From positions 1-64,000 of the forward strand of contig JAIRRJ010000056.1 of the NCBI GenBank assembly GCA_031256035.1: a stretch of DNA of 64,000 nt, given 5' to 3'. Numbering within the stretch: position 1 is the stretch's first letter; the number at the start of each line of letters is the position of its first letter. The DNA is from Treponema sp. Lineage in GTDB: Bacteria > Spirochaetota > Spirochaetia > Treponematales > Breznakiellaceae. Shown piece after piece: positions 3,530-39,105 of this stretch. A program made the position numbers and the translations under genes. Under the pieces are notes generated by a model that was not told the DNA's origin, did no database searches, and saw nothing but the letters and a program-made list of their open reading frames with translations.

Positions 3530-4720
3530 TCATTGCTGATTTTTTATTGGCACATATCCGGTTCTTTGAACCAATGTTTGCCCTTGCTCAGATAAAATCC
3601 ATTCAATAAATGATTCAATGTTTTCGTTTTTTTCATCGTTCTCAATATATATTGCATAAAAACTTTCTGAAAAAGGATAACTGTTATCTTGTATCGTTTC
3701 TGTTGACGGGGAAATACCATTAACAGACAATAGTTTTATATGATCATTTTTTACCATTTTTGTAGAAAAGAATAAAAAAGAATAACCTATTGCGTTGGAA
3801 AAATTTCTATAATCGGCAACTTGGTTTATTATAGTACCCATACCCCAGGACACATTTTCCCTGCGGGGTTTAATAATGGGATTGCCGCCCATTATTTTTT
3901 CCAATAACGTTTGACTTCCTGAATTCTTTGGTCTTTGAAAAGCCCTGATTCTCCGGTTTGCTCCATTTACTTTTTTCCAGTTTTTTATCCTGCCTGAATA
4001 TATCCCTTGAATGTTTTCTATTGTTAAATTGTTTACTTTGTTTTCTTTGTTTACAAAAAACACAAAGGCTTCCCTTCCAATGGCTGTAAATTTTACTTTT
4101 ATGCCATTGTCAGTAAAACGTTTTAACTGTGTGTCCGACGGCTCTGCGCAAAATATTATGTCTGCTTTTCCTTCAAAGAGATTATCATAAGCTCCATCGG
4201 TTTTATTGCAAAATACCGGATAACCGCTCATAGGTTTGTAATCATTAACATAATAATTACCTTTTGGATAAACTGCCTGCACAAACGAAGCATACACAGG
4301 GTAAAGAGCCGTTGCCCCATCAAGTACCGGCAAATTGTCATTTATATTTAATTTGGATTCTTCATCGAGTTCTGCCAAATATCCGCTTTCCCCAAATGGC
4401 GCATAACCGCCCAAAGAAATATCTTGATTAACAGTTGGAATTTCATCTACATAAAATTGATATTTAATAACTGCTGCTCCCGAAATAATACAGACAACAG
4501 AAACTAAAAAAAGAAAATAAATAACTTTTGATTTTATTTTGTTCCATGAAATCAAAAATACTATTATTGATACATAAGAAACAAATAATAATGTGATCAA
4601 AATTTCTCTTTGAGTAGAAAAAAGAAGTAATACCAGAACAATTAATGACAGAACACTGATTACAATTCCAATAAAGACACTAATTAATATTTTGACTGTT
4701 TTTCTTGTTTTTTCTTCCAT
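3530..4720 (-). CDS. Membrane-anchored PstS-like phosphate-binding-type protein
   Basis: The N-terminus holds three hydrophobic helices (about residues 11-34, 38-57 and 65-86). The remaining 300 residues are a periplasmic-binding-protein fold of the PstS type. Markers are LDGATALYPVYASF near the start of the domain, GIYSGRIKNWKKVNG in the middle, and RPKNSGSQTLL, which matches the phosphate-contact loop of PstS proteins. It has no lipobox or cleavable signal, so the binding domain is probably tethered outside the membrane by the helices. No PstC, PstA or PstB lies nearby, which argues for sensing or scavenging rather than ordinary transport. It is clearly more AT-rich than the flanking genes and is followed upstream by two small exported proteins on the same strand, so the three may be one transcript and recently acquired. 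The ligand is inferred, not shown. Confidence 0.7.
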   Translation of the reverse strand: MEEKTRKTVKILISVFIGIVISVLSLIVLVLLLFSTQREILITLLFVSYVSIIVFLISWNKIKSKVIYFLFLVSVVCIISGAAVIKYQFYVDEIPTVNQDISLGGYAPFGESGYLAELDEESKLNINDNLPVLDGATALYPVYASFVQAVYPKGNYYVNDYKPMSGYPVFCNKTDGAYDNLFEGKADIIFCAEPSDTQLKRFTDNGIKVKFTAIGREAFVFFVNKENKVNNLTIENIQGIYSGRIKNWKKVNGANRRIRAFQRPKNSGSQTLLEKIMGGNPIIKPRRENVSWGMGTIINQVADYRNFSNAIGYSFLFFSTKMVKNDHIKLLSVNGISPSTETIQDNSYPFSESFYAIYIENDEKNENIESFIEWILSEQGQTLVQRTGYVPIKNQQ

Positions 4721-26460: not shown

Positions 26461-26997
26461 ATGATTTTTTTTACAGCAGATACGCATTTTAACGATTCTT
26501 ATTGTATAGAATTATTCAAAAGACCGTTTTCCGGTGTTGAACAAATGGATGAAACAATTATAAGAAACTGGAATTCATGTGTGAATGACAATGATGAAGT
26601 ATACATTTTGGGAGATTTTGCATTTACCGGTAACAGCTTGGAACCTGAAATTCTTTTGAAAAAGTTGAATGGCAGGAAATATTTAATAAGAGGCAATCAT
26701 GATCATTTTCTTGACGATAAGAATTTCAACATAAAAAACTTTGAATGGGTCAAGGATTATTATGTACTGGAATATGAAACGAAAAAGTTTGTATTATTTC
26801 ATTATCCGATATTTATGTGGGATGGATATTTTGACGGTACGGCAATCCACTTGTATGGCCATGTACACAATATGTTAGGTAACAAAAAAGAGCAGGAAAG
26901 ACTTAACATACTTGGTAAAAAAGCAATGAATGTGGGCGTGGACATGAATAACTTTTTCCCGGTCAGCATTGAAAAAATAATACAGGAAACAGAGTGA
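26461..26997 (+). CDS. Small calcineurin-like metallophosphoesterase
   Basis: A 178-residue protein with the metal-binding signatures of the family: TADTHFND (standing for DxH), LGDFAF (GD), IRGNHDHF (GNHD) and LYGHVHN (GHxH). These bind two metals and hydrolyse phosphate esters; relatives of this size are often described as phage or host phosphoesterases of unknown substrate. AAGGAG lies seven bases before the ATG. The gene is much more AT-rich than its neighbours and ends beside a tRNA gene, which fits acquisition by horizontal transfer. No integrase or attachment repeat is visible. Confidence 0.85.
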   Translation: MIFFTADTHFNDSYCIELFKRPFSGVEQMDETIIRNWNSCVNDNDEVYILGDFAFTGNSLEPEILLKKLNGRKYLIRGNHDHFLDDKNFNIKNFEWVKDYYVLEYETKKFVLFHYPIFMWDGYFDGTAIHLYGHVHNMLGNKKEQERLNILGKKAMNVGVDMNNFFPVSIEKIIQETE

Positions 26998-31833: not shown

Positions 31834-32091
31834 TTATTCATAATGTCCGCCGCATTGGACAATAATTATTTGGGTTTTTTCTGCTTTATATACTATGCGG
31901 TTTGCCTCGTCAATCCGGCGACTCCAATAACCTTGTAAATTTCCTACCAATGGTTCGGGCTTACCGATACCGGTAAAGGGATGCCTGTTTATATCTTCCA
32001 GAAGCTTATTGATACGCTTTAGTGTTTTTCTGTCCTGCTTCTGCCATTCAAGATATTCGTCCCATGCCCTGTCGTGCCATAATTTATTCAT
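31834..32091 (-). CDS. yoeB: YoeB-type mRNA interferase toxin
   Basis: An 85-residue RelE-superfamily toxin very like E. coli YoeB: WDEYLEWQKQDRKTLKRIN, GKPEPLVGNLQGYWSRRID, and a C-terminus CGGHYE. Residues matching the catalytic Glu (in KPEPL), Arg (in SRRI) and His (in GGHYE) are present, so it should be active in cutting mRNA at the ribosome. Its start overlaps the antitoxin stop by eight bases, the usual arrangement for coupled translation. The pair lies between lsrK and lsrF. Confidence 0.95.
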   Translation of the reverse strand: MNKLWHDRAWDEYLEWQKQDRKTLKRINKLLEDINRHPFTGIGKPEPLVGNLQGYWSRRIDEANRIVYKAEKTQIIIVQCGGHYE

Positions 32092-32356
32092 TTTCCGGCT
32101 CTATCAAATCGTGAGATGCAAGATTTTTTCCCGCTTTAATATCCGCAATTCTGCGCATCAACTCCGTTTGATTTTTATCACTAAAAAACGGGTCATAAAT
32201 TTCAAATGGTATTTTTCCCTGACGCAGGGCTTGACGTGCAAAAACACCAAAAGCAGTGGACAGATTCATTCCAAAATCCCCAAACAACTTTTCGGCATTT
32301 TCCTTTATATCACGGTCCAGCCTTATTGTTACGTTGATTGTCTGACTTTGCGTCAT
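32084..32356 (-). CDS. relB: RelB/DinJ-family antitoxin
   Basis: A 90-residue antitoxin. The N-terminal half is a ribbon-helix-helix of the RelB/DinJ type (TINVTIRLDRDIKENAEKLF and GMNLSTAFGVFARQAL), which binds DNA for autoregulation. The C-terminal half is a charged tail that wraps the toxin. The ATG at 32356 is preferred over one 21 bases upstream because GGAGG lies just before it. RelB/DinJ antitoxins normally pair with RelE or YafQ and YoeB with YefM, so this is a mixed pairing, which is common. Its promoter and a CTATC-A-GATAG dyad lie immediately upstream. Confidence 0.92.
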   Translation of the reverse strand: MTQSQTINVTIRLDRDIKENAEKLFGDFGMNLSTAFGVFARQALRQGKIPFEIYDPFFSDKNQTELMRRIADIKAGKNLASHDLIEPENE

Positions 32357-32388
32357 AGTAGAACCTCCAGTCAACAAATTACGCTTTT

Positions 32389-33384: not shown

Positions 33385-33388
33385 GCGA

Positions 33389-34627
33389 TTATTTCAGACA
33401 ATAAGCCTCAGCCAGATTAAGTCTTCCTTCCTTTACGTCTACATTGTCCATTTTAACGGAATGGATTACTTGATTACCCGAGTCATAATAATTTATCACA
33501 AATGAATATGTGCCCGGATTAAGGTTTATACCTGTAACCCACGCCCATGCTGGGAAAAATCGTGAAGAACGAACATCGACTTTATCAAGATTCAAGCCTG
33601 TTTTCATAATTGAATTGCGCAGCAAAGTCCTGATTAGAACTAAATTAAATTTTTTCTTGTAGGTCTCATTGTAAACAGCCTCAAGATTTTCCAGCTTTTC
33701 CAGTTTTACTGTTTGACCATTGTCAAACTTTATTTCTATTCTGTTGACCAGAGAAGGACGCGGCTCAAGTACCGAAACGGCCGCAGATACATAGTTCCCT
33801 TCATCATAAAGCTGCTGTTGTACGACAGCGGCTTTTTTTACAGGAGAAAGACCGCTGAATCCGATGACATTAAGTCTTGCCATTCCTCTTGGCACTGCAA
33901 TCTCTCCGCTTGCAGTCGATGGAATTGGAAAGTCATAGATTTCAGGAGCATTGTTGAAAGCCGCTTTTAGCCAGTCATAATCGACACGGACGCCGTTTTC
34001 ATTTCCGCTTGCCCTGTGAAATAATACGCCCAAATACCGCCCCAGCGCCGAATTGGCAAATTTTGAAGAAACATAATCGATATTATCGCCTTGTCCCGCT
34101 CTTGCCTGCATTTCTTTGCTGCTAACGCTGTATTTATTTTCCAAAAAAGCCAGTTTCTCGTTTATCCGTCTTGCCTCTACCACAGCGCTTTCTATTTTAT
34201 CCTTGTGATAATAGTTCAAGGCATTAAACAGGTTGACATAAATATCTTCAAAATCCTCACTTTCATATTCAAGAAGATTATCACCGGCAAACCCGGAAGC
34301 TTCTCTTTTTGATATACTTTTGGTGTATGCTTCTTCAATGTGCCTTTCAGCTTCCCGCAGAAATTCAATGGAAGCGTCATGATTGCCCGCGTAATGATTC
34401 AATATTCCCGCATCCAGTTCATACAAGATAACTGAATTCATGGTATAGAGTTTATTCTTATTGGCGTCAAAGTCATTGACGGCTTCCTGATAATTACCAT
34501 TATGCGCGGCGGCATCTATTCCCTTAAAAAGAGAAGGATCGATATTATTGTTATTGCCGGCGCCGGTATTAGCGCAGGAAAATATCAACAACATTGCTGA
34601 CATGACGGTATATTTGGTTTTTTTCAT
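33389..34627 (-). CDS. Lipoprotein with TPR-like helices
   Basis: A 412-residue lipoprotein (lipobox LLIFSC near residue 18). The first half is helical and TPR-like: AAHNGNYQEAVNDFD, YELDAGILNHYAGNHDASIEFLREAERH, and YHKDKIESAVVEARRINEKL. The second half is beta-rich and ends VKEGRLNLAEAYCLK. The pattern recalls the uncharacterised COG3014 family of Gram-negative lipoproteins, a tentative match. GGAGG precedes the ATG at 34627; an earlier in-frame start is rejected because it would place the lipobox too deep. The small lipoprotein gene 34658-35029 lies 30 bases upstream on the same strand, so both are probably one operon. Confidence 0.75.
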   Translation of the reverse strand: MKKTKYTVMSAMLLIFSCANTGAGNNNNIDPSLFKGIDAAAHNGNYQEAVNDFDANKNKLYTMNSVILYELDAGILNHYAGNHDASIEFLREAERHIEEAYTKSISKREASGFAGDNLLEYESEDFEDIYVNLFNALNYYHKDKIESAVVEARRINEKLAFLENKYSVSSKEMQARAGQGDNIDYVSSKFANSALGRYLGVLFHRASGNENGVRVDYDWLKAAFNNAPEIYDFPIPSTASGEIAVPRGMARLNVIGFSGLSPVKKAAVVQQQLYDEGNYVSAAVSVLEPRPSLVNRIEIKFDNGQTVKLEKLENLEAVYNETYKKKFNLVLIRTLLRNSIMKTGLNLDKVDVRSSRFFPAWAWVTGINLNPGTYSFVINYYDSGNQVIHSVKMDNVDVKEGRLNLAEAYCLK

Positions 34628-34657
34628 AATTATCCTCCTGTTATCTGCAAATGCCAA

Positions 34658-35029
34658 TTATTTTCCCGGCTTTCTTGCTACGAAAATCATTGCCTCATCA
34701 GGATTAATGGCGGTACTCCTGAACATGTATATGTACCCCGCCTCAAAATCATGGTAATGTTCAATTGTTTTTTCGTTAAAAATAACTTTCATGGTGTGAT
34801 AACCTTCAGGGATACGAACTTTTAAATCTATAAGGCTGGACATTGGAGGCGTCCATTTAACCGGAGCTTCATCAAATTCCGTTATCGTTATAAAGTTGGG
34901 GATTTGCAAAGTGCATAATTTATCCTCCGGTACTGTTTCGTCATATACTATTGGAAGCGATGCACAACCGGAAAGCGCAAGAGCAAATAATACCGTAAAA
35001 AAAATTGACCCCAATCCCGTTTTTTTCAT
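34658..35029 (-). CDS. Small lipoprotein of unknown function
   Basis: A 123-residue lipoprotein with a clear signal and lipobox (LALSGC, Cys at residue 22) and a compact beta-rich mature domain. That domain includes PPMSSLIDLKVRIPEGYHT, which resembles a PEGA-like or transthyretin-like strand pattern, and a C-terminus AMIFVARKPGK. AGGAG lies upstream of the ATG. It is the first gene of a two-lipoprotein operon. No family is recognised with confidence. Confidence 0.7.
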   Translation of the reverse strand: MKKTGLGSIFFTVLFALALSGCASLPIVYDETVPEDKLCTLQIPNFITITEFDEAPVKWTPPMSSLIDLKVRIPEGYHTMKVIFNEKTIEHYHDFEAGYIYMFRSTAINPDEAMIFVARKPGK

Positions 35030-35159
35030 ATTTTACTCCTGTATCTTTTAGGATTTAATATACGGTTACTTTTACATTTTTACAAGCGACTTTTTTACGG
35101 TTTTACCGTGTTATATTCATCCGTTGTTAATTCGGACACGCTGGGTGACAGATTCGGTA

Positions 35160-35477
35160 TTACTTTCTCATTTCATCAAAGGCGGCCTTAATGTCATTTG
35201 ATACTGTTTCGACCAGTTTTTTTTGTATAGATTCCATCCGTTTTAAGTATGCTGACCGTCCCGGCTGTGTTTCATCAAAAAATAGCTGATACGGCTCAAT
35301 CTTCAGGGCATCGGCAAGCTTCCCAATGAACGCAAATGAAGGATGCCCTTTTCCGCTCTCAAGCTGCCTGATATATGAATGAGCGGTGTCGCACTTTTCC
35401 GCTAGTTCCTTCTGGGAAAACCCAATAATTTTACGCCATTTCTTTAAATTATGGATAAAAAGCTGGTCTAAATCCAT
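35160..35477 (-). CDS. XRE-family transcriptional regulator
   Basis: A 105-residue Cro/CI-type regulator. The helix-turn-helix covers residues 17-45 (FSQKELAEKCDTAHSYIRQLE), followed by the usual SFAFIGKLADALKIEPYQLF. The C-terminal 35 residues are a charged helix that may dimerise. AGGAT precedes the ATG and TATAAT lies at 35507-35512 on the minus strand. It is divergent from the AT-rich methyltransferase cassette, which it may control, since the two promoters are within 40 bp of each other. Confidence 0.9.
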   Translation of the reverse strand: MDLDQLFIHNLKKWRKIIGFSQKELAEKCDTAHSYIRQLESGKGHPSFAFIGKLADALKIEPYQLFFDETQPGRSAYLKRMESIQKKLVETVSNDIKAAFDEMRK

Positions 35478-35519
35478 TTTTGTATCCTACGAGCGATCTT
35501 TTATTAATTATAGAGACAC

Positions 35520-35549
35520 TTGACACATACATTATAAGTAAATTATGAT
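35520..35549 (+). promoter_or_regulatory. Promoter of the methyltransferase-aminotransferase-cytidylyltransferase cassette
   Basis: TTGACA (35520-35525), 18-bp spacer, TATGAT (35544-35549). GGAG at 35569-35572 serves the first gene. Confidence 0.6.
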
Positions 35550-35581
35550 CGTTATAAACTAACAATTTGGAGATTATGACA

Positions 35582-36319
35582 ATGAATACAATTGGAAGAA
35601 TTTATGGCGGAAAAGCGGCCATTGACACTGAAAGTGTGAAGGATTTTTTTAATAACAATGCCAAGAAAGACACTTCCCTAAAATCTGTTTTACTTGGGAA
35701 CGATTTTGGTGAAAATAGCGCCGATTTGCATAATCAAAAAGAAGCAAAAATTGTAATGGATTTTATCGGCAGTGGTAAAAAAAATGTTTTGGATATTGGT
35801 TGTGGAATTGGCAGGTGGGCATATAACCTAAAACAGTTAATTAGAAAATATGATGGAATAGATTTTTCAGAGGAATTTGTAAAAGCGGCAGCCAATAATT
35901 TAATGGATGTCAATGAAACAAAGTTTTATTGCATGTCTGCAACTGACATTGACAGGACAAAATTATTGGAAAAATATGATGTCATCATAGTAACAGGAGT
36001 GTCAATGTATATAAATGATAATGAACTGAAAAAACTATATGATTACATAAACAATTTTTCTCAAAGTGGTACTTTGCTATATTTACAGGATACAACAAGT
36101 CTACTTAAAACAAGACTAACACTAAAAGACTTTGACTCAAGGGAACTTAATACAAAATATAACGCTATTTATCGGACAAAGGCAGAATATGAAATATTAT
36201 TTAAACAATATTTATCCATGTTTAAATTGACTGAAAATGGCACAGACCTATTGCTAGATAAAAATAGTGGAGCAAGGGAAGAAACAAATGCCAGATATTG
36301 GTGTTTCAGGAAAGAATGA
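35582..36319 (+). CDS. Class I SAM-dependent methyltransferase
   Basis: A 245-residue methyltransferase with the SAM-binding glycine motif NVLDIGCGIGRWAYNL, an acidic residue after the second strand (YDGIDFSEEFV) and motif-IV-like YDVIIVTGVSMYI. The substrate cannot be read from the sequence. Its neighbours, an aminotransferase and a cytidylyltransferase, suggest a small amino-alcohol or aminophosphonate, where N-methylation would be chemically sensible; this is inference. The ATG at 35582 is nine bases after GGAG and is preferred to the ATG at 35576, which is too close to the site. The whole cassette is AT-rich compared with flanking genes. Confidence 0.8.
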   Translation: MNTIGRIYGGKAAIDTESVKDFFNNNAKKDTSLKSVLLGNDFGENSADLHNQKEAKIVMDFIGSGKKNVLDIGCGIGRWAYNLKQLIRKYDGIDFSEEFVKAAANNLMDVNETKFYCMSATDIDRTKLLEKYDVIIVTGVSMYINDNELKKLYDYINNFSQSGTLLYLQDTTSLLKTRLTLKDFDSRELNTKYNAIYRTKAEYEILFKQYLSMFKLTENGTDLLLDKNSGAREETNARYWCFRKE

Positions 36320-36337
36320 AACATTCCGGAGGATGTT

Positions 36338-37399
36338 ATGAAACTTTTTACACCCGGTCCTATTATGATGGCCCCTGAAACTATTATTGAAGCGGGCAGA
36401 CAATCGCAATACTTTCGCACTCCCGAATTTTCTAAAATGCTTAGTGAATGTGCGGAAATGCTTGGAGATATACTGAATGCACCCGATTACGCAAAAATGA
36501 TTTTCCTCACAGGAAGTGGAACAGCCGCAATGGAAGCAACAGTAACGAATCTTTTTACAGAACAGGATAAAATCATCATAATAAACGGCGGCAGCTTTGG
36601 AAAAAGATTTAAACAGATATGTGAAATTCATAACCTAAACTTTGTATCCATAGACCTGGAATGGAATGAAACATTCAGCACGGAAATTTTGACAAACTAT
36701 CAGGAATCCGGTTTTACTGGTATGTTGATTAACATGTGCGAGACATCTACCGGACAAAAATATCCCATGGAAGCAATAGCCGAATTTTGCAAAACCAACA
36801 ATATTTGTCTTGTTATTGACGCAATCAGTTCTTTTTTATGTGATTCAGTAAGAATGAAACCATTGGGGGCAGCAGCCGTTATTATCAGTTCTCAAAAAGG
36901 CTTGGGATTACAACCAGGAATGTCATTTGTCGCCTTGACAGAAGAAGCTTACAGGGGACGTTGTGAGCGGAACAAAGTTAAATCATTGTATTTTCGTTTT
37001 ACTGATTATGTTAGTGATATAGGGCGTGGGCAAACTCCGTATACGCCGGCGGTCAGTATTATTAATCAGCTCCATTGCAAACTCAATAAATTGGTTAGTG
37101 AAGGGGTATGGGCGCAAATTTATCACATTGCGACGCTTGCATCGTATTTTAGAGCGAAGCTTACGGAAAAAACAAATTTTATTATTCCAACGTATCCATT
37201 GTCGAATTGTTTAACGCCTGTTTACTGTGAGAAAAATAATGCGATGGAAATAGTTGAAATACTAAAAAAACGTCATGATGTATATGTTACACCGTGCGGC
37301 GGTTCAACAGCATCATTTTTATTCCGTGTCGCACACATGAGCAGGCAAATCACAAAAGATGATGTTGATGTACTGATTGAATTATTGCGGAATTATTGA
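36338..37399 (+). CDS. Class V PLP aminotransferase (2-aminoethylphosphonate transaminase-like)
   Basis: A 353-residue fold-type I PLP enzyme. It starts FTPGPIMMAPE, as in PhnW and alanine-glyoxylate transaminases, then shows LTGSGTAAMEA (PLP phosphate loop), VIDAISSFLCD (Asp that pairs with the pyridine N) and ISSQKGLGLQPG, whose Lys forms the Schiff base. The C-terminal domain ends with FRVAHMSRQIT. By order and motifs the best guess is transamination between an amino-ethyl or amino-alcohol phosphate/phosphonate and an oxo acid. GGAGGATGTT sets the start. It overlaps the region before the cytidylyltransferase, with the next start 12 bases after its stop. Confidence 0.82.
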   Translation: MKLFTPGPIMMAPETIIEAGRQSQYFRTPEFSKMLSECAEMLGDILNAPDYAKMIFLTGSGTAAMEATVTNLFTEQDKIIIINGGSFGKRFKQICEIHNLNFVSIDLEWNETFSTEILTNYQESGFTGMLINMCETSTGQKYPMEAIAEFCKTNNICLVIDAISSFLCDSVRMKPLGAAAVIISSQKGLGLQPGMSFVALTEEAYRGRCERNKVKSLYFRFTDYVSDIGRGQTPYTPAVSIINQLHCKLNKLVSEGVWAQIYHIATLASYFRAKLTEKTNFIIPTYPLSNCLTPVYCEKNNAMEIVEILKKRHDVYVTPCGGSTASFLFRVAHMSRQITKDDVDVLIELLRNY

Positions 37400-37410
37400 C
37401 GGACAGTAAA

Positions 37411-37872
37411 ATGATAGCTAATAAAACAGTGGTTTATACATCCGGCACATTTGATATGCTTCACATCAACCATTTGAAAATGATTGAATACGCGCGTTCA
37501 CTGGCTGATATTTTAATTGTCGGAGTAAATACCGATGAGTTGGTATCATCATATAAAACAGATCCAATTATACCATTTGAGGAACGTATAGCATTAGTTA
37601 AAGCGCTAAAATATCCCGATATAGTTATACCCCAACATTCACTTGATCATAGAGAAAAAGTTAAAAATTTGAATTTTGATGTTTTTGTAGTTGGTGACGA
37701 TTGGACCGGAAGATTTGACTATCTAAACGAACAAAAGGTAACGGTTGTATATTTTCCTTACGGGGTGGGTATTAGCTCCACTAATTTGAAAGAAAGGATA
37801 TACAAAAACTATGAAGCAATAAAGCAAAAAGCCGATTCACATTTTCCTATGGATTTAGTTATAGTACAATAA
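37411..37872 (+). CDS. TagD-like cytidylyltransferase
   Basis: A 153-residue nucleotidyltransferase of the glycerol-3-phosphate cytidylyltransferase type. It has the nucleotide-binding GTFDMLHINHLKMIEYA (HxxH), VGVNTDELVSSYK, and VGISSTNLKERI matching the RTSGIS-like block. It would couple a phosphate or phosphonate to CMP. In Treponema denticola the fused enzyme PntC pairs such a domain with an AEP transaminase, so the separate pair here could make CMP-activated 2-aminoethylphosphonate or a related head group. No PEP mutase is in the window. An in-frame TTG at 37396 is possible, but ATG 37411 gives a normal N-terminus. Confidence 0.85.
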   Translation: MIANKTVVYTSGTFDMLHINHLKMIEYARSLADILIVGVNTDELVSSYKTDPIIPFEERIALVKALKYPDIVIPQHSLDHREKVKNLNFDVFVVGDDWTGRFDYLNEQKVTVVYFPYGVGISSTNLKERIYKNYEAIKQKADSHFPMDLVIVQ

Positions 37873-37896
37873 CTATAAAAAGCCAGTCTAAATCCA

Positions 37897-39105
37897 CTAC
37901 CCATTGCCCTTAGGTGCTTCCGGTTGATTAGGTCCAAATCCCTTGATTAGCACCAGCGGCTCTACGGGGCTAACGTTGGTGATAACGATCCCTTTTTTGG
38001 CAGCGTCTTCGGACACAAAGAATTCGTCCGCGCTTTGCTGGCCGAAGCGCAGCATCCCCGGCGCTTCGCAATGGTACGCGCCGAATTTGCCATGCCCCTG
38101 GGTGAAAATCACGCTGTGTGCGGCAGGCTCCTTGATCGTAACCGTTTTTCTCGGATTAATCGAAAGTTCCTTCCCGCTGAAATAGCCGTCATTCGCATAA
38201 GAGATCCATCTCTCTTCATAGTCTGAGTTTTTGGCAATGGTGATCGGCGGTCTGCCAAAGCGTTTTTTGTAGTGGGGATCGACATTCTTTTCCCAGTCCA
38301 GCAGGCTGAAAATATAATCAATGTCATCTTTTTTATCGGGCGGACATTCGCCGTTCAAGAATTCGCGGGGGTAAGTTACGCCGGAGACTACATTTTCGTG
38401 TACTGAGTTGACGTCTCCGTTCCAGTTAAGTTCCCATGTCATCACAGAGCCGGGCGCGTGGATGACGCCGCCGGGGGAGTACCAGCCCGAACCAAGCTCA
38501 ATGCGCCATGCGCGGGAAAGTTCGGTGATGCGGGTGTCGCCCTTGTTGAAATCACGGAGGCGCTGTTTTACTTCTTCCGGTTTGGTGTCGGGATCGTAGC
38601 CGAAATAGGTCGCGTTCATTTCTCCGGTGTGGCTTGCGAACTGGTGCGGGAAGTAATAACACTCAGGTTTGCCGAGTTTGCCGACACGGGCTGCTGCTTC
38701 CATATCAAGATGCAGGTGATGAAAGAGCGGCGTTTTAAGATCATAGAATTTCGAGAACACGGGGAAACCGCCGTATTGCGTCATGAGTTCTTTCCCGATA
38801 ACCGCCGCGCCCAACGCCGCGATTGCATCTTTCAGGCTGAACTTTTCGTTGCTGCCGTAATCTGTCGCCACAAAACTCAAGCCCTCTTCAGGCCCTGCAA
38901 GCGGCCCGTTCTGGGCGATATTGGTAGAAGCCATCCACCGCTCTTTTATGGAGCCGCGTTCAAGCCCGTAGGCAAAGTAATCATCGGGATGCAGCCTTAA
39001 CCGCCTGCCTTCAACACCGAAAGGACGCGGGATAAAGTTCGGATTCAGGCGGAAGATGCCTTCGCCCTTTTGCAGTGTTTTTTCCATTAATTCTTTATTT
39101 GCCAT
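37897..39105 (-). CDS. Mannose-6-phosphate-isomerase-like bicupin protein
   Basis: A 402-residue cytoplasmic protein with the look of a class I phosphomannose isomerase: FHHLHLDMEAAARVGKLG, KPECYYFPHQ, and YFGYDPDTKPEEVKQRL follow the order of the PMI metal and substrate regions. The usual Gln of the QVHP-like metal motif is replaced (LFHHLHL), so the site differs. A second beta-barrel lies in the C-terminal half (TVTIKEPAAHSVIFTQGHGK). Sugar isomerase activity is possible but not assured. AGGAGG precedes the ATG. It is the last gene downstream of citrate synthase on the same strand with a 31-bp gap. Confidence 0.65.
   Translation of the reverse strand: MANKELMEKTLQKGEGIFRLNPNFIPRPFGVEGRRLRLHPDDYFAYGLERGSIKERWMASTNIAQNGPLAGPEEGLSFVATDYGSNEKFSLKDAIAALGAAVIGKELMTQYGGFPVFSKFYDLKTPLFHHLHLDMEAAARVGKLGKPECYYFPHQFASHTGEMNATYFGYDPDTKPEEVKQRLRDFNKGDTRITELSRAWRIELGSGWYSPGGVIHAPGSVMTWELNWNGDVNSVHENVVSGVTYPREFLNGECPPDKKDDIDYIFSLLDWEKNVDPHYKKRFGRPPITIAKNSDYEERWISYANDGYFSGKELSINPRKTVTIKEPAAHSVIFTQGHGKFGAYHCEAPGMLRFGQQSADEFFVSEDAAKKGIVITNVSPVEPLVLIKGFGPNQPEAPKGNG

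What the first reader, a model, noticed from the sequence alone, without database searches (positions are those of the whole stretch)
35520..37872. AT-rich methyltransferase, class V aminotransferase and TagD-like cytidylyltransferase cassette
Three tightly packed genes behind a divergent XRE regulator combine enzymes to transaminate, N- or O-methylate and CMP-activate a small molecule. Treponema denticola PntC, a fused cytidylyltransferase and AEP transaminase, is an established precedent for CMP-activated aminoethylphosphonate. Here the two activities are separate and a methyltransferase is added, which could give methylated aminophosphonate (phosphonocholine-like) or aminopropanediol head groups on surface glycans or lipids. 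Base composition differs from the flanks, suggesting transfer.
Basis: partly seen in the sequence, partly recalled or inferred. Interest (0 to 1): 0.5.

Follow-up and report, generated by a model that had tools for sequence, protein, structure and literature searches.

The report
Surface head-group donor gene cassette
Three genes that a spirochete probably acquired from elsewhere look able to build and activate a small methylated amino-alcohol phosphate for decorating the cell surface, using an enzyme set that recurs in gut bacteria and methane-making archaea.

Summary
The three genes are real, compact and AT-rich, in a variable slot between two conserved genes. Methyltransferase (MT), class V aminotransferase (AT) and a cytidylyltransferase (CT) recur together elsewhere, including Methanobrevibacter. 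The phosphonate reading is not supported: no PEP mutase was found in the genome, AT scores far below the AEP-transaminase cut-off that a PntC from the same genus passes, and only 7 of 48 tested AT-bearing relatives' genomes hold a PEP mutase over cut-off. AT belongs to a surface-polysaccharide family paired with one of three cytidylyltransferase kinds, usually near LicD or TagF transferases. CT is a distinct TagD-like clade with H-x-N-H in place of H-x-G-H. MT's profile matches phosphoethanolamine N-methyltransferases best. I propose that AT makes an aminoalkyl phosphate, most likely serinol phosphate from dihydroxyacetone phosphate; MT N-methylates it; CT makes the CDP donor; and a TagF-like transferase encoded elsewhere uses it. 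Related TagF-like genes sit beside AT-CT in Treponemas and beside genuine phosphonate genes in sister genomes, so this looks like a phosphate-based counterpart of phosphonate tailoring. All substrates are inferred.

The parts
35576..36319 (+). MT: SAM-dependent methyltransferase, best matched by phosphoethanolamine N-methyltransferases; start 35576 or 35582 (longest ORF from 35567)
   Evidence: Pfam; family alignment A2 with members from Spirochaetota, Bacteroidota and Methanobacteriota; profile search whose four best PDB sequences are all phosphoethanolamine N-methyltransferases
36338..37399 (+). AT: class V PLP aminotransferase of a surface-polysaccharide family whose nearest solved member by sequence is 3f0h, not PhnW
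37411..37872 (+). CT: TagD-like cytidylyltransferase of the H-x-N-H clade (153 aa; the ORF from TTG 37396 overlaps AT)
35160..35477 (-). Divergent XRE-family regulator; present here but not conserved with the cassette
33385..37896 (.). Variable slot between a conserved convergent gene pair, holding two small ORFs, the XRE gene and the cassette (4.5 kb here; about 0.5-1.3 kb in 6 of 13 same-genus loci examined)

Best explanation
The cassette makes a CMP-activated, N-methylated amino-alcohol phosphate (a phosphate ester, not a phosphonate) as a donor for surface glycan or lipid decoration. Step 1: AT transaminates a small phosphorylated carbonyl compound; the most likely one is dihydroxyacetone phosphate giving serinol phosphate (about 0.35 on its own). 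Step 2: MT N-methylates that phosphobase. Step 3: CT couples it to CMP from CTP. Step 4: a TagF-like transferase on another contig (C77) moves the head group to a polymer. Shown here: gene families, recurrence of the gene set, no PEP mutase found, and a TagF-like gene whose relatives sit next to AT-CT in Treponemas. Inferred: every substrate and product, the order of methylation and activation, and the link in trans to C77.
For: AT lies within 6 kb of a cytidylyltransferase in 71 of 78 related loci, within 200 bp on the same strand in 55 of 78, and LicD or TagF is within 6 kb in 58 of 78. Three cytidylyltransferase kinds alternate on the AT tree: H-x-N-H TagD-like, TagD fused to Gfo/Idh/MocA, and LicC-like. 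L086 carries AT and LicC in one frame. MT accompanies AT in 9 of 78 loci, two of them from one MAG, on at least three AT clades; its profile's four best PDB sequences are phosphoethanolamine N-methyltransferases, sharing the LMY-(I/L)-x-D region. CT is the only TagD-like enzyme found in the genome: the other three PF01467 hits read as CoaD, NadD and RibF (names by my reading). No PEP mutase found. The C77 TagF-like protein is 41-56% identical to the gene directly upstream of AT in Treponema L064, L068 and L099. In sister genomes a TagF-like gene of this kind directly follows PntC (L128, L130). In L176 a HisC-like aminotransferase takes the AT slot upstream of the same CT; it is 59% identical to the L069 protein, whose best PDB hits are histidinol-phosphate aminotransferases. 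HisC acts on an acetol phosphate (recalled), the group found in dihydroxyacetone phosphate, and Campylobacter Cj1437 makes (S)-serinol-P from it (PMC11800397, passages read).
Against: No substrate was measured. MT is not constant: L027, one of the three closest relatives, has AT-CT and no MT within 6 kb, and in L028 MT follows CT. The MT fold comparison does not single out phosphoethanolamine methyltransferases: alpha-N-terminal protein methyltransferases score Z 22.2 and AtPMT1 21.6, a tie. The shared C-terminal Tyr-Arg motif is not decisive: 6 of 500 shuffles scored above it and two tied. HisC-like and AT genes coexist in L053 and L069, so they need not do the same step, and only 1.5 kb around L176's CT was read. 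TagF-like genes are not tied to donor modules: of 13 same-genus genomes with one (this one included), 7 showed no PEP mutase, PntC or close copy of this AT, though one of the 7 was not in the AT search. The cassette and C77 lie on different contigs. The CT structure prediction failed (mean pLDDT 45.5).
Confidence: 0.6

Rival explanations
1. The product is phosphoethanolamine and, after methylation, N-methylated phosphoethanolamine up to phosphocholine: a choline-independent route to CDP-choline-like donors, with AT working on glycolaldehyde phosphate.
For: MT profile is closest to phosphoethanolamine N-methyltransferases; AT partners include LicC-like enzymes and LicD; CT matches ethanolamine-phosphate cytidylyltransferase nearly as well as TagD (2.7e-23 against 4.7e-27). 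Fusobacterium nucleatum polymorphum is described as lacking the lic operon except licC and licD (PMC1924603, passages).
Against: No known ready source of glycolaldehyde phosphate (recalled); TagD- and TagF-like partners and the HisC-like substitute fit a three-carbon substrate better.
Confidence: 0.2
2. Phosphonate reading: AT makes 2-aminoethylphosphonate, MT methylates it, CT makes CMP-(methyl)AEP.
For: AT's best NCBIfam match is TIGR03301 PhnW-AepZ, though below cut-off; CT resembles the Fom1 cytidylyltransferase domain in places; real pnt clusters occur in the same genus (6 of 39 genomes with PEP mutase over cut-off); the genome of L028 (full gene set) has a PEP mutase over cut-off and that of the closest relative L026 a truncated one.
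Against: No PEP mutase found in this genome, 94.87% complete. In L028's genome PEP mutase has its own fused cytidylyltransferase domain and decarboxylase, and L026's PEP mutase also has a fused cytidylyltransferase domain; neither lies in the 12-17 kb fetched around the cassette. PEP mutase is over cut-off in only 7 of 48 AT-bearing relatives' genomes tested.
Confidence: 0.08
3. CT simply makes CDP-glycerol for a teichoic-acid-like polymer and AT and MT are unrelated passengers.
For: Best PDB match of CT is B. subtilis TagD; the genome has TagF-like transferases.
Against: AT-cytidylyltransferase adjacency is widely conserved; H-x-N-H CTs form a clade (100/98) apart from TagD (with long-branch warnings); Treponema L068 has both this CT and a true TagD about 6 kb apart; score is below the TagD cut-off (109 against 165).
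Confidence: 0.07
4. The cassette is a recent, possibly non-working acquisition whose transferase partner was lost.
For: No LicD found, no transferase beside the cassette, foreign base composition; MT of the closest relative L026 loses its C-terminal part.
Against: All three ORFs are open; AT and CT are 77 and 84% identical to those of L026 and MT 68% over 187 residues; TagF-like genes exist in trans.
Confidence: 0.05

Closest known systems
Treponema denticola PntC-AEPT (phosphonyl tailoring, pnt)
   Same: Class V aminotransferase plus cytidylyltransferase activating a small amino-phosphorus compound for surface decoration; in sister genomes the pnt module lies beside the same type of TagF-like gene.
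   Different: LicC-type cytidylyltransferase fused to the transaminase; needs PEP mutase and decarboxylase, not found here over cut-off; AT lies on a separate branch from sister-genome PntC.
Lic pathway (LicC cytidylyltransferase, LicD transferase)
   Same: CDP donor logic; LicC-like and LicD proteins are partners of AT in many relatives.
   Different: No LicD found in this genome; choline kinase not searched; CT is TagD-like, not LicC-like.
TagD/TagF (CDP-glycerol, wall teichoic acid)
   Same: CT sequence family and TagF-like transferases.
   Different: H-x-N-H instead of H-x-G-H, no Arg at the RTEGIS position, below the TagD cut-off, separate clade.
Phosphoethanolamine N-methyltransferases of plants and nematodes (first domain)
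   Same: Best sequence-profile match of MT.
   Different: Stand-alone prokaryotic protein, 16-18% identical in the structural alignments; substrate untested.
Campylobacter jejuni Cj1437 serinol-phosphate pathway
   Same: Transamination of dihydroxyacetone phosphate for a capsule decoration is the chemistry proposed here.
   Different: In C. jejuni serinol-P is joined by an amide bond (PMC11800397, passages), with no CMP activation in the passages read; I did not compare the Cj1437 sequence with AT.

Membership tests
pnt / PntC phosphonate tailoring | PEP mutase encoded in the genome | tested here: not met
   PF13714 and TIGR02320, 0 matches in G000; draft genome, 94.87% complete
pnt / PntC phosphonate tailoring | Phosphonopyruvate decarboxylase over cut-off | tested here: not met
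   TIGR03297 best 28.3 bits against cut-off 312.5
pnt / PntC phosphonate tailoring | Transaminase passes the AEP-transaminase model | tested here: not met
   152.3 against 360.8 bits; positive control L009 381.3
pnt / PntC phosphonate tailoring | CMP-AEP formation | not testable with these tools
   needs enzyme assay
TagD glycerol-3-phosphate cytidylyltransferase | Score over TIGR01518 cut-off | tested here: not met
   108.9 against 165.4 bits; relative L066 112.2. The TagD-Gfo protein L099 also falls short (116.8); no accepted TagD was run as a positive control
TagD glycerol-3-phosphate cytidylyltransferase | HxGH and RTEGIS-type motifs | tested here: not met
   H-I-N-H and Y-G-V-G-I-S here; H-x-N-H invariant in 9 of 9 and present in 7 of 7 close copies from Spirochaetota genomes, some of which may repeat earlier genomes
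Phosphoethanolamine N-methyltransferase | Best sequence-profile match among solved methyltransferases | tested here: met
   four best of 154 sequences at E 0.01 or better
Phosphoethanolamine N-methyltransferase | Fold match above other N-methyltransferases | tested here: inconclusive
   Z 21.6 against 22.2 for alpha-N-terminal methyltransferases
Phosphoethanolamine N-methyltransferase | C-terminal phosphate-site Tyr-Arg motif | tested here: inconclusive
   columns align, but 6 of 500 shuffles scored above and two tied; role of the motif recalled
Lic pathway | LicD transferase in the genome | tested here: not met
   PF04991, 0 matches
Lic pathway | Choline kinase LicA | not tested
   no search made

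The most novel reading that the evidence does not exclude
A PEP-mutase-independent, de novo pathway to CDP-activated, N-methylated amino-alcohol phosphates (CDP-serinol type) is spread across gut Bacillota, Bacteroidota, Spirochaetota and methanogenic archaea. Its parts are freely exchanged: three kinds of cytidylyltransferase, two aminotransferase folds, optional methyltransferase, LicD or TagF transferase. In spirochetes it stands in for phosphonate tailoring at the same kind of surface-polymer locus.
Probability: 0.35. Interest if true: 0.65.

Novelty: new variant of a known kind. Interest (0 to 1): 0.47.

Why it matters
If right, many gut bacteria and Methanobrevibacter carry a surface head-group chemistry that would be annotated as scattered aminotransferases, cytidylyltransferases and LicD proteins. 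It could explain licC/licD sets that lack the other lic genes, as reported for one Fusobacterium (PMC1924603, passages), and it gives a compact set of three enzymes to assay. It would also show a phosphate-ester module standing in for a phosphonate module at the same kind of polymer locus.

Tried and rejected
Phosphonate reading: tested with PEP mutase, decarboxylase and the transaminase cut-off; rejected as the main reading. Plain TagD reading: rejected on motif, cut-off and tree. LicD in the own genome: not found. AlphaFold model of CT: mean pLDDT 45.5, not used. MT fold comparison: generic N-methyltransferase neighbourhood, no substrate. Plasmid and phage collections, searched with AT only: best matches 41, 39 and 35% identical in plasmids and about 40% in two unannotated phage records. 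The 2.1 Mb Fusobacterium 'plasmid' (L023) has no annotation in the stretch. Literature: no paper held 'LicD family' with 'aminotransferase class V', 'CDP-serinol', or 'phosphoethanolamine N-methyltransferase' with bacteria, archaea and cytidylyltransferase. Searches listed nothing on this gene set beyond the papers cited, judged from titles and starts of abstracts. The library is open-access only, so this is weak evidence of absence. All ten paper searches are used.

Rows dropped before counts: L034 and L063 (no AT ORF called), leaving 78 of 80 genome-collection loci; L087 and L088 come from one MAG and both count (L088 left out of the tree). The three cytidylyltransferase kinds add to 72 because one locus has two. 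PEP mutase was tested in the genomes of 48 of the 80 loci (49 loci given, L027 not held); five of the 48 have matches below cut-off.
Full report
OBSERVATION. MT (35567-36319, start more likely 35576 or 35582), AT (36338-37399) and CT (to 37872; start more likely ATG 37411, as in its close homologues) are on the + strand, tightly spaced, with an XRE-family gene divergent upstream. GC is 31.6, 38.6 and 33.5% against 47% for the window. The flanking aldolase gene and the 402-aa gene form a convergent pair. In 6 of 13 same-genus loci examined (L138, L139, L142, L144, L145, L146) their matched ends lie about 0.5-1.3 kb apart; here the gap is 4.5 kb. Six further loci show no aldolase in the 1.5 kb fetched and L147 has the two genes in tandem. 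Among 58 other genomes, 35 of them same-genus, none has a close copy of this AT; the nearest is 40% identical, in the same order. So the insert looks acquired.

ORIGIN. The genome is a 3.1 Mb draft in 120 contigs, 94.87% complete. It is placed in the same order as G051, whose contig of 511,612 bases matches the length of a Treponema sp. record (L064), so it is a spirochete. The closest AT homologues are a Spirochaetaceae MAG (77%), a Spirochaetia bacterium (64%) and a Bacteroidales MAG (60%). I take these isolate names as termite-gut material from recall; habitats were not checked.

RECURRENCE. A scan of the species-genome collection gave 282 AT relatives, of which the best 80 loci were kept. 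In 78 usable loci a cytidylyltransferase lies within 6 kb in 71, and within 200 bp on the same strand in 55. LicD or TagF is within 6 kb in 58, MT in 9, PEP mutase in 3, PEP mutase or its decarboxylase in 4. The cytidylyltransferase is one of three kinds: H-x-N-H TagD-like (11 loci), TagD fused to a Gfo/Idh/MocA domain (27), LicC-like (34). The kinds alternate on the AT tree, and MT occurs on several AT branches (window group, Methanobrevibacter, L096). MT is optional: L027 has AT-CT without MT within 6 kb, and in L028 MT follows CT. The AT family is separated from the AT domain of two sister-genome PntC proteins (100/100, long branch). L086 carries AT and LicC in one 593-aa frame. This repeated pairing with exchangeable cytidylyltransferases is the strongest evidence that AT's product is CMP-activated.

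CT. Close relatives are 75-84% identical across Bacteroidota and Spirochaetota, although the paired ATs outside the window group are only about 40-45% identical. In 392 Spirochaetota genomes, 8 including this one have the close form (76-100%); the next copies are 48% identical or less. The nucleotide-binding H-x-G-H reads H-x-N-H in 9 of 9 aligned members and in 7 of 7 close copies (some may repeat earlier genomes); the more distant copies L178 and L179 read H-I-G-H. The clade is separate from TagD and from PEP-mutase-fused domains (100/98); that tree carries long-branch warnings. Treponema L068 has this CT and a true TagD in one cluster, which argues for different substrates. It is the only TagD-like enzyme found in the genome: the other PF01467 hits read as CoaD, NadD and RibF (my reading of the sequences).

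MT. Ten sequences, the window's included, align; L026 lacks the C-terminal part and L052 and L096 are distant (20 and 28%). The profile's four best PDB sequences, of 154 at E 0.01 or better, are plant and nematode phosphoethanolamine N-methyltransferases (4e-23 to 6e-15), matched best in the first domain including the LMY region. The AlphaFold model (mean pLDDT 82.9) is near alpha-N-terminal protein methyltransferases (Z 22.2) and AtPMT1 (Z 21.6), which is a tie. The C-terminal Tyr-Arg motif aligns, but 6 of 500 shuffles beat it and two tied. I therefore claim a phosphobase methyltransferase as likely, not shown.

PHOSPHONATE TEST. No PEP mutase by two models; decarboxylase only at 28 bits against a cut-off of 312.5. 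AT scores 152 against 361, while the PntC of sister genome G019 scores 381. PEP mutase is over cut-off in 7 of 48 AT-bearing relatives' genomes, and five more have matches below it. Against me: L028's genome has one and L026's has a truncated one, and these are two of the three closest relatives (L027's genome was not held). Both have their own fused cytidylyltransferase domain and do not lie in the 12-17 kb fetched around the cassette. In the same genus 6 of 39 genomes have PEP mutase over cut-off.

TRANSFERASE. No LicD was found, but two TagF-like genes were. The one on C77 lies in a polysaccharide-type locus with an 896-aa protein and two genes that I read as glycosyltransferases. Its homologue sits directly upstream of AT in Treponema L064, L068 and L099, with a homologue of the 896-aa gene in the same loci. 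TagF-like genes adjoin the module in 5 of 7 further loci from L064's family, 4 upstream on the same strand and 1 on the opposite strand. In sister genomes such a gene directly follows PntC (L128, L130). So the same type of transferase locus is served by a phosphonate module in some genomes and by AT-CT in others. Limits: of 13 same-genus genomes with this TagF-like gene (this one included), 7 showed no PEP mutase, PntC or close copy of this AT; one of the 7, G108, was not in the AT search. Here the cassette acts, if at all, in trans.

SUBSTRATE. Dihydroxyacetone phosphate is my first choice. It is generally available (recalled). Serinol phosphate is the amino analogue of glycerol phosphate, which suits TagD- and TagF-like partners. 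In L176 a HisC-like aminotransferase occupies the AT slot upstream of the same CT. It is 59% identical to the L069 protein, whose best PDB hits are histidinol-phosphate aminotransferases, and HisC works on an acetol phosphate (recalled). In L172 a larger protein with a weakly HisC-like part does so. Campylobacter Cj1437 makes serinol-P from dihydroxyacetone phosphate (PMC11800397, passages). Against: HisC-like and AT genes coexist in L053 and L069, and only 1.5 kb was read beside L176's and L172's CT. Phosphoethanolamine is the main alternative, favoured by MT.

LITERATURE. PMC6697681 (abstract, passages and the section on nucleotidyltransferase enrichment) defines PntC. PMC13215547 (passages) describes a Mycoplasma MetRS with an aminotransferase domain, a distant AT relative, and a nucleotidyltransferase-like domain. 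PMC10434233 (passages) surveys phosphorylcholine pathways; the word aminotransferase does not occur in its main text. PMC1924603 (passages) reports licC and licD without the rest of the lic operon in F. nucleatum polymorphum, and a serine-pyruvate aminotransferase and a cholinephosphate cytidylyltransferase shared with vincentii; a LicD-AT-LicC set is seen in the vincentii record L023. Ten searches showed no paper on this gene set.

VERDICT. A real, recurrent donor-making cassette; the phosphonate reading fails on present evidence; class-level function fairly likely, exact substrate open.

Noticed in passing
window 31834-32377 (-): Two short adjacent ORFs read like a YoeB/RelE-type toxin and its RelB-like antitoxin (by eye; no family search).
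   Followed up: no
window 3530-4720 and 26461-26997: Other AT-rich ORFs (GC 32-33%) in a 47% GC window, possibly further acquired genes.
   Followed up: no
L128, L129, L130, L132, L133 (same-genus genomes): Genuine phosphonate clusters (two or more of PEP mutase, decarboxylase, PntC-type protein) in sister species; in L128 and L130 PntC is followed by a TagF-like gene.
   Followed up: partly
L124 7265-10207 (own contig C14): TagF-like gene beside an NAD epimerase and an IspD-like cytidylyltransferase; counterparts of the last two (41 and 68% identical) lie near LicD and AT-CT in L027.
   Followed up: partly
L026 7015-7653: MT of the closest relative loses the conserved C-terminal part, by a frame change or an assembly error.
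   Followed up: no
L061 6141-7952 and L076: Fusion of a LicC-like nucleotidyltransferase with a HisC-like class I aminotransferase, close to AT and PEP mutase: a different-fold analogue of PntC.
   Followed up: no
L023 (NZ_CP084075.1): A 2.1 Mb Fusobacterium vincentii record filed as a plasmid with one annotated feature; by its size it looks like a chromosome.
   Followed up: no
window 37897-39105 (-): A 402-aa protein with no Pfam match, 88-90% identical over nearly its full length in 13 other same-genus genomes, while 22 of 39 genomes show no match.
   Followed up: no
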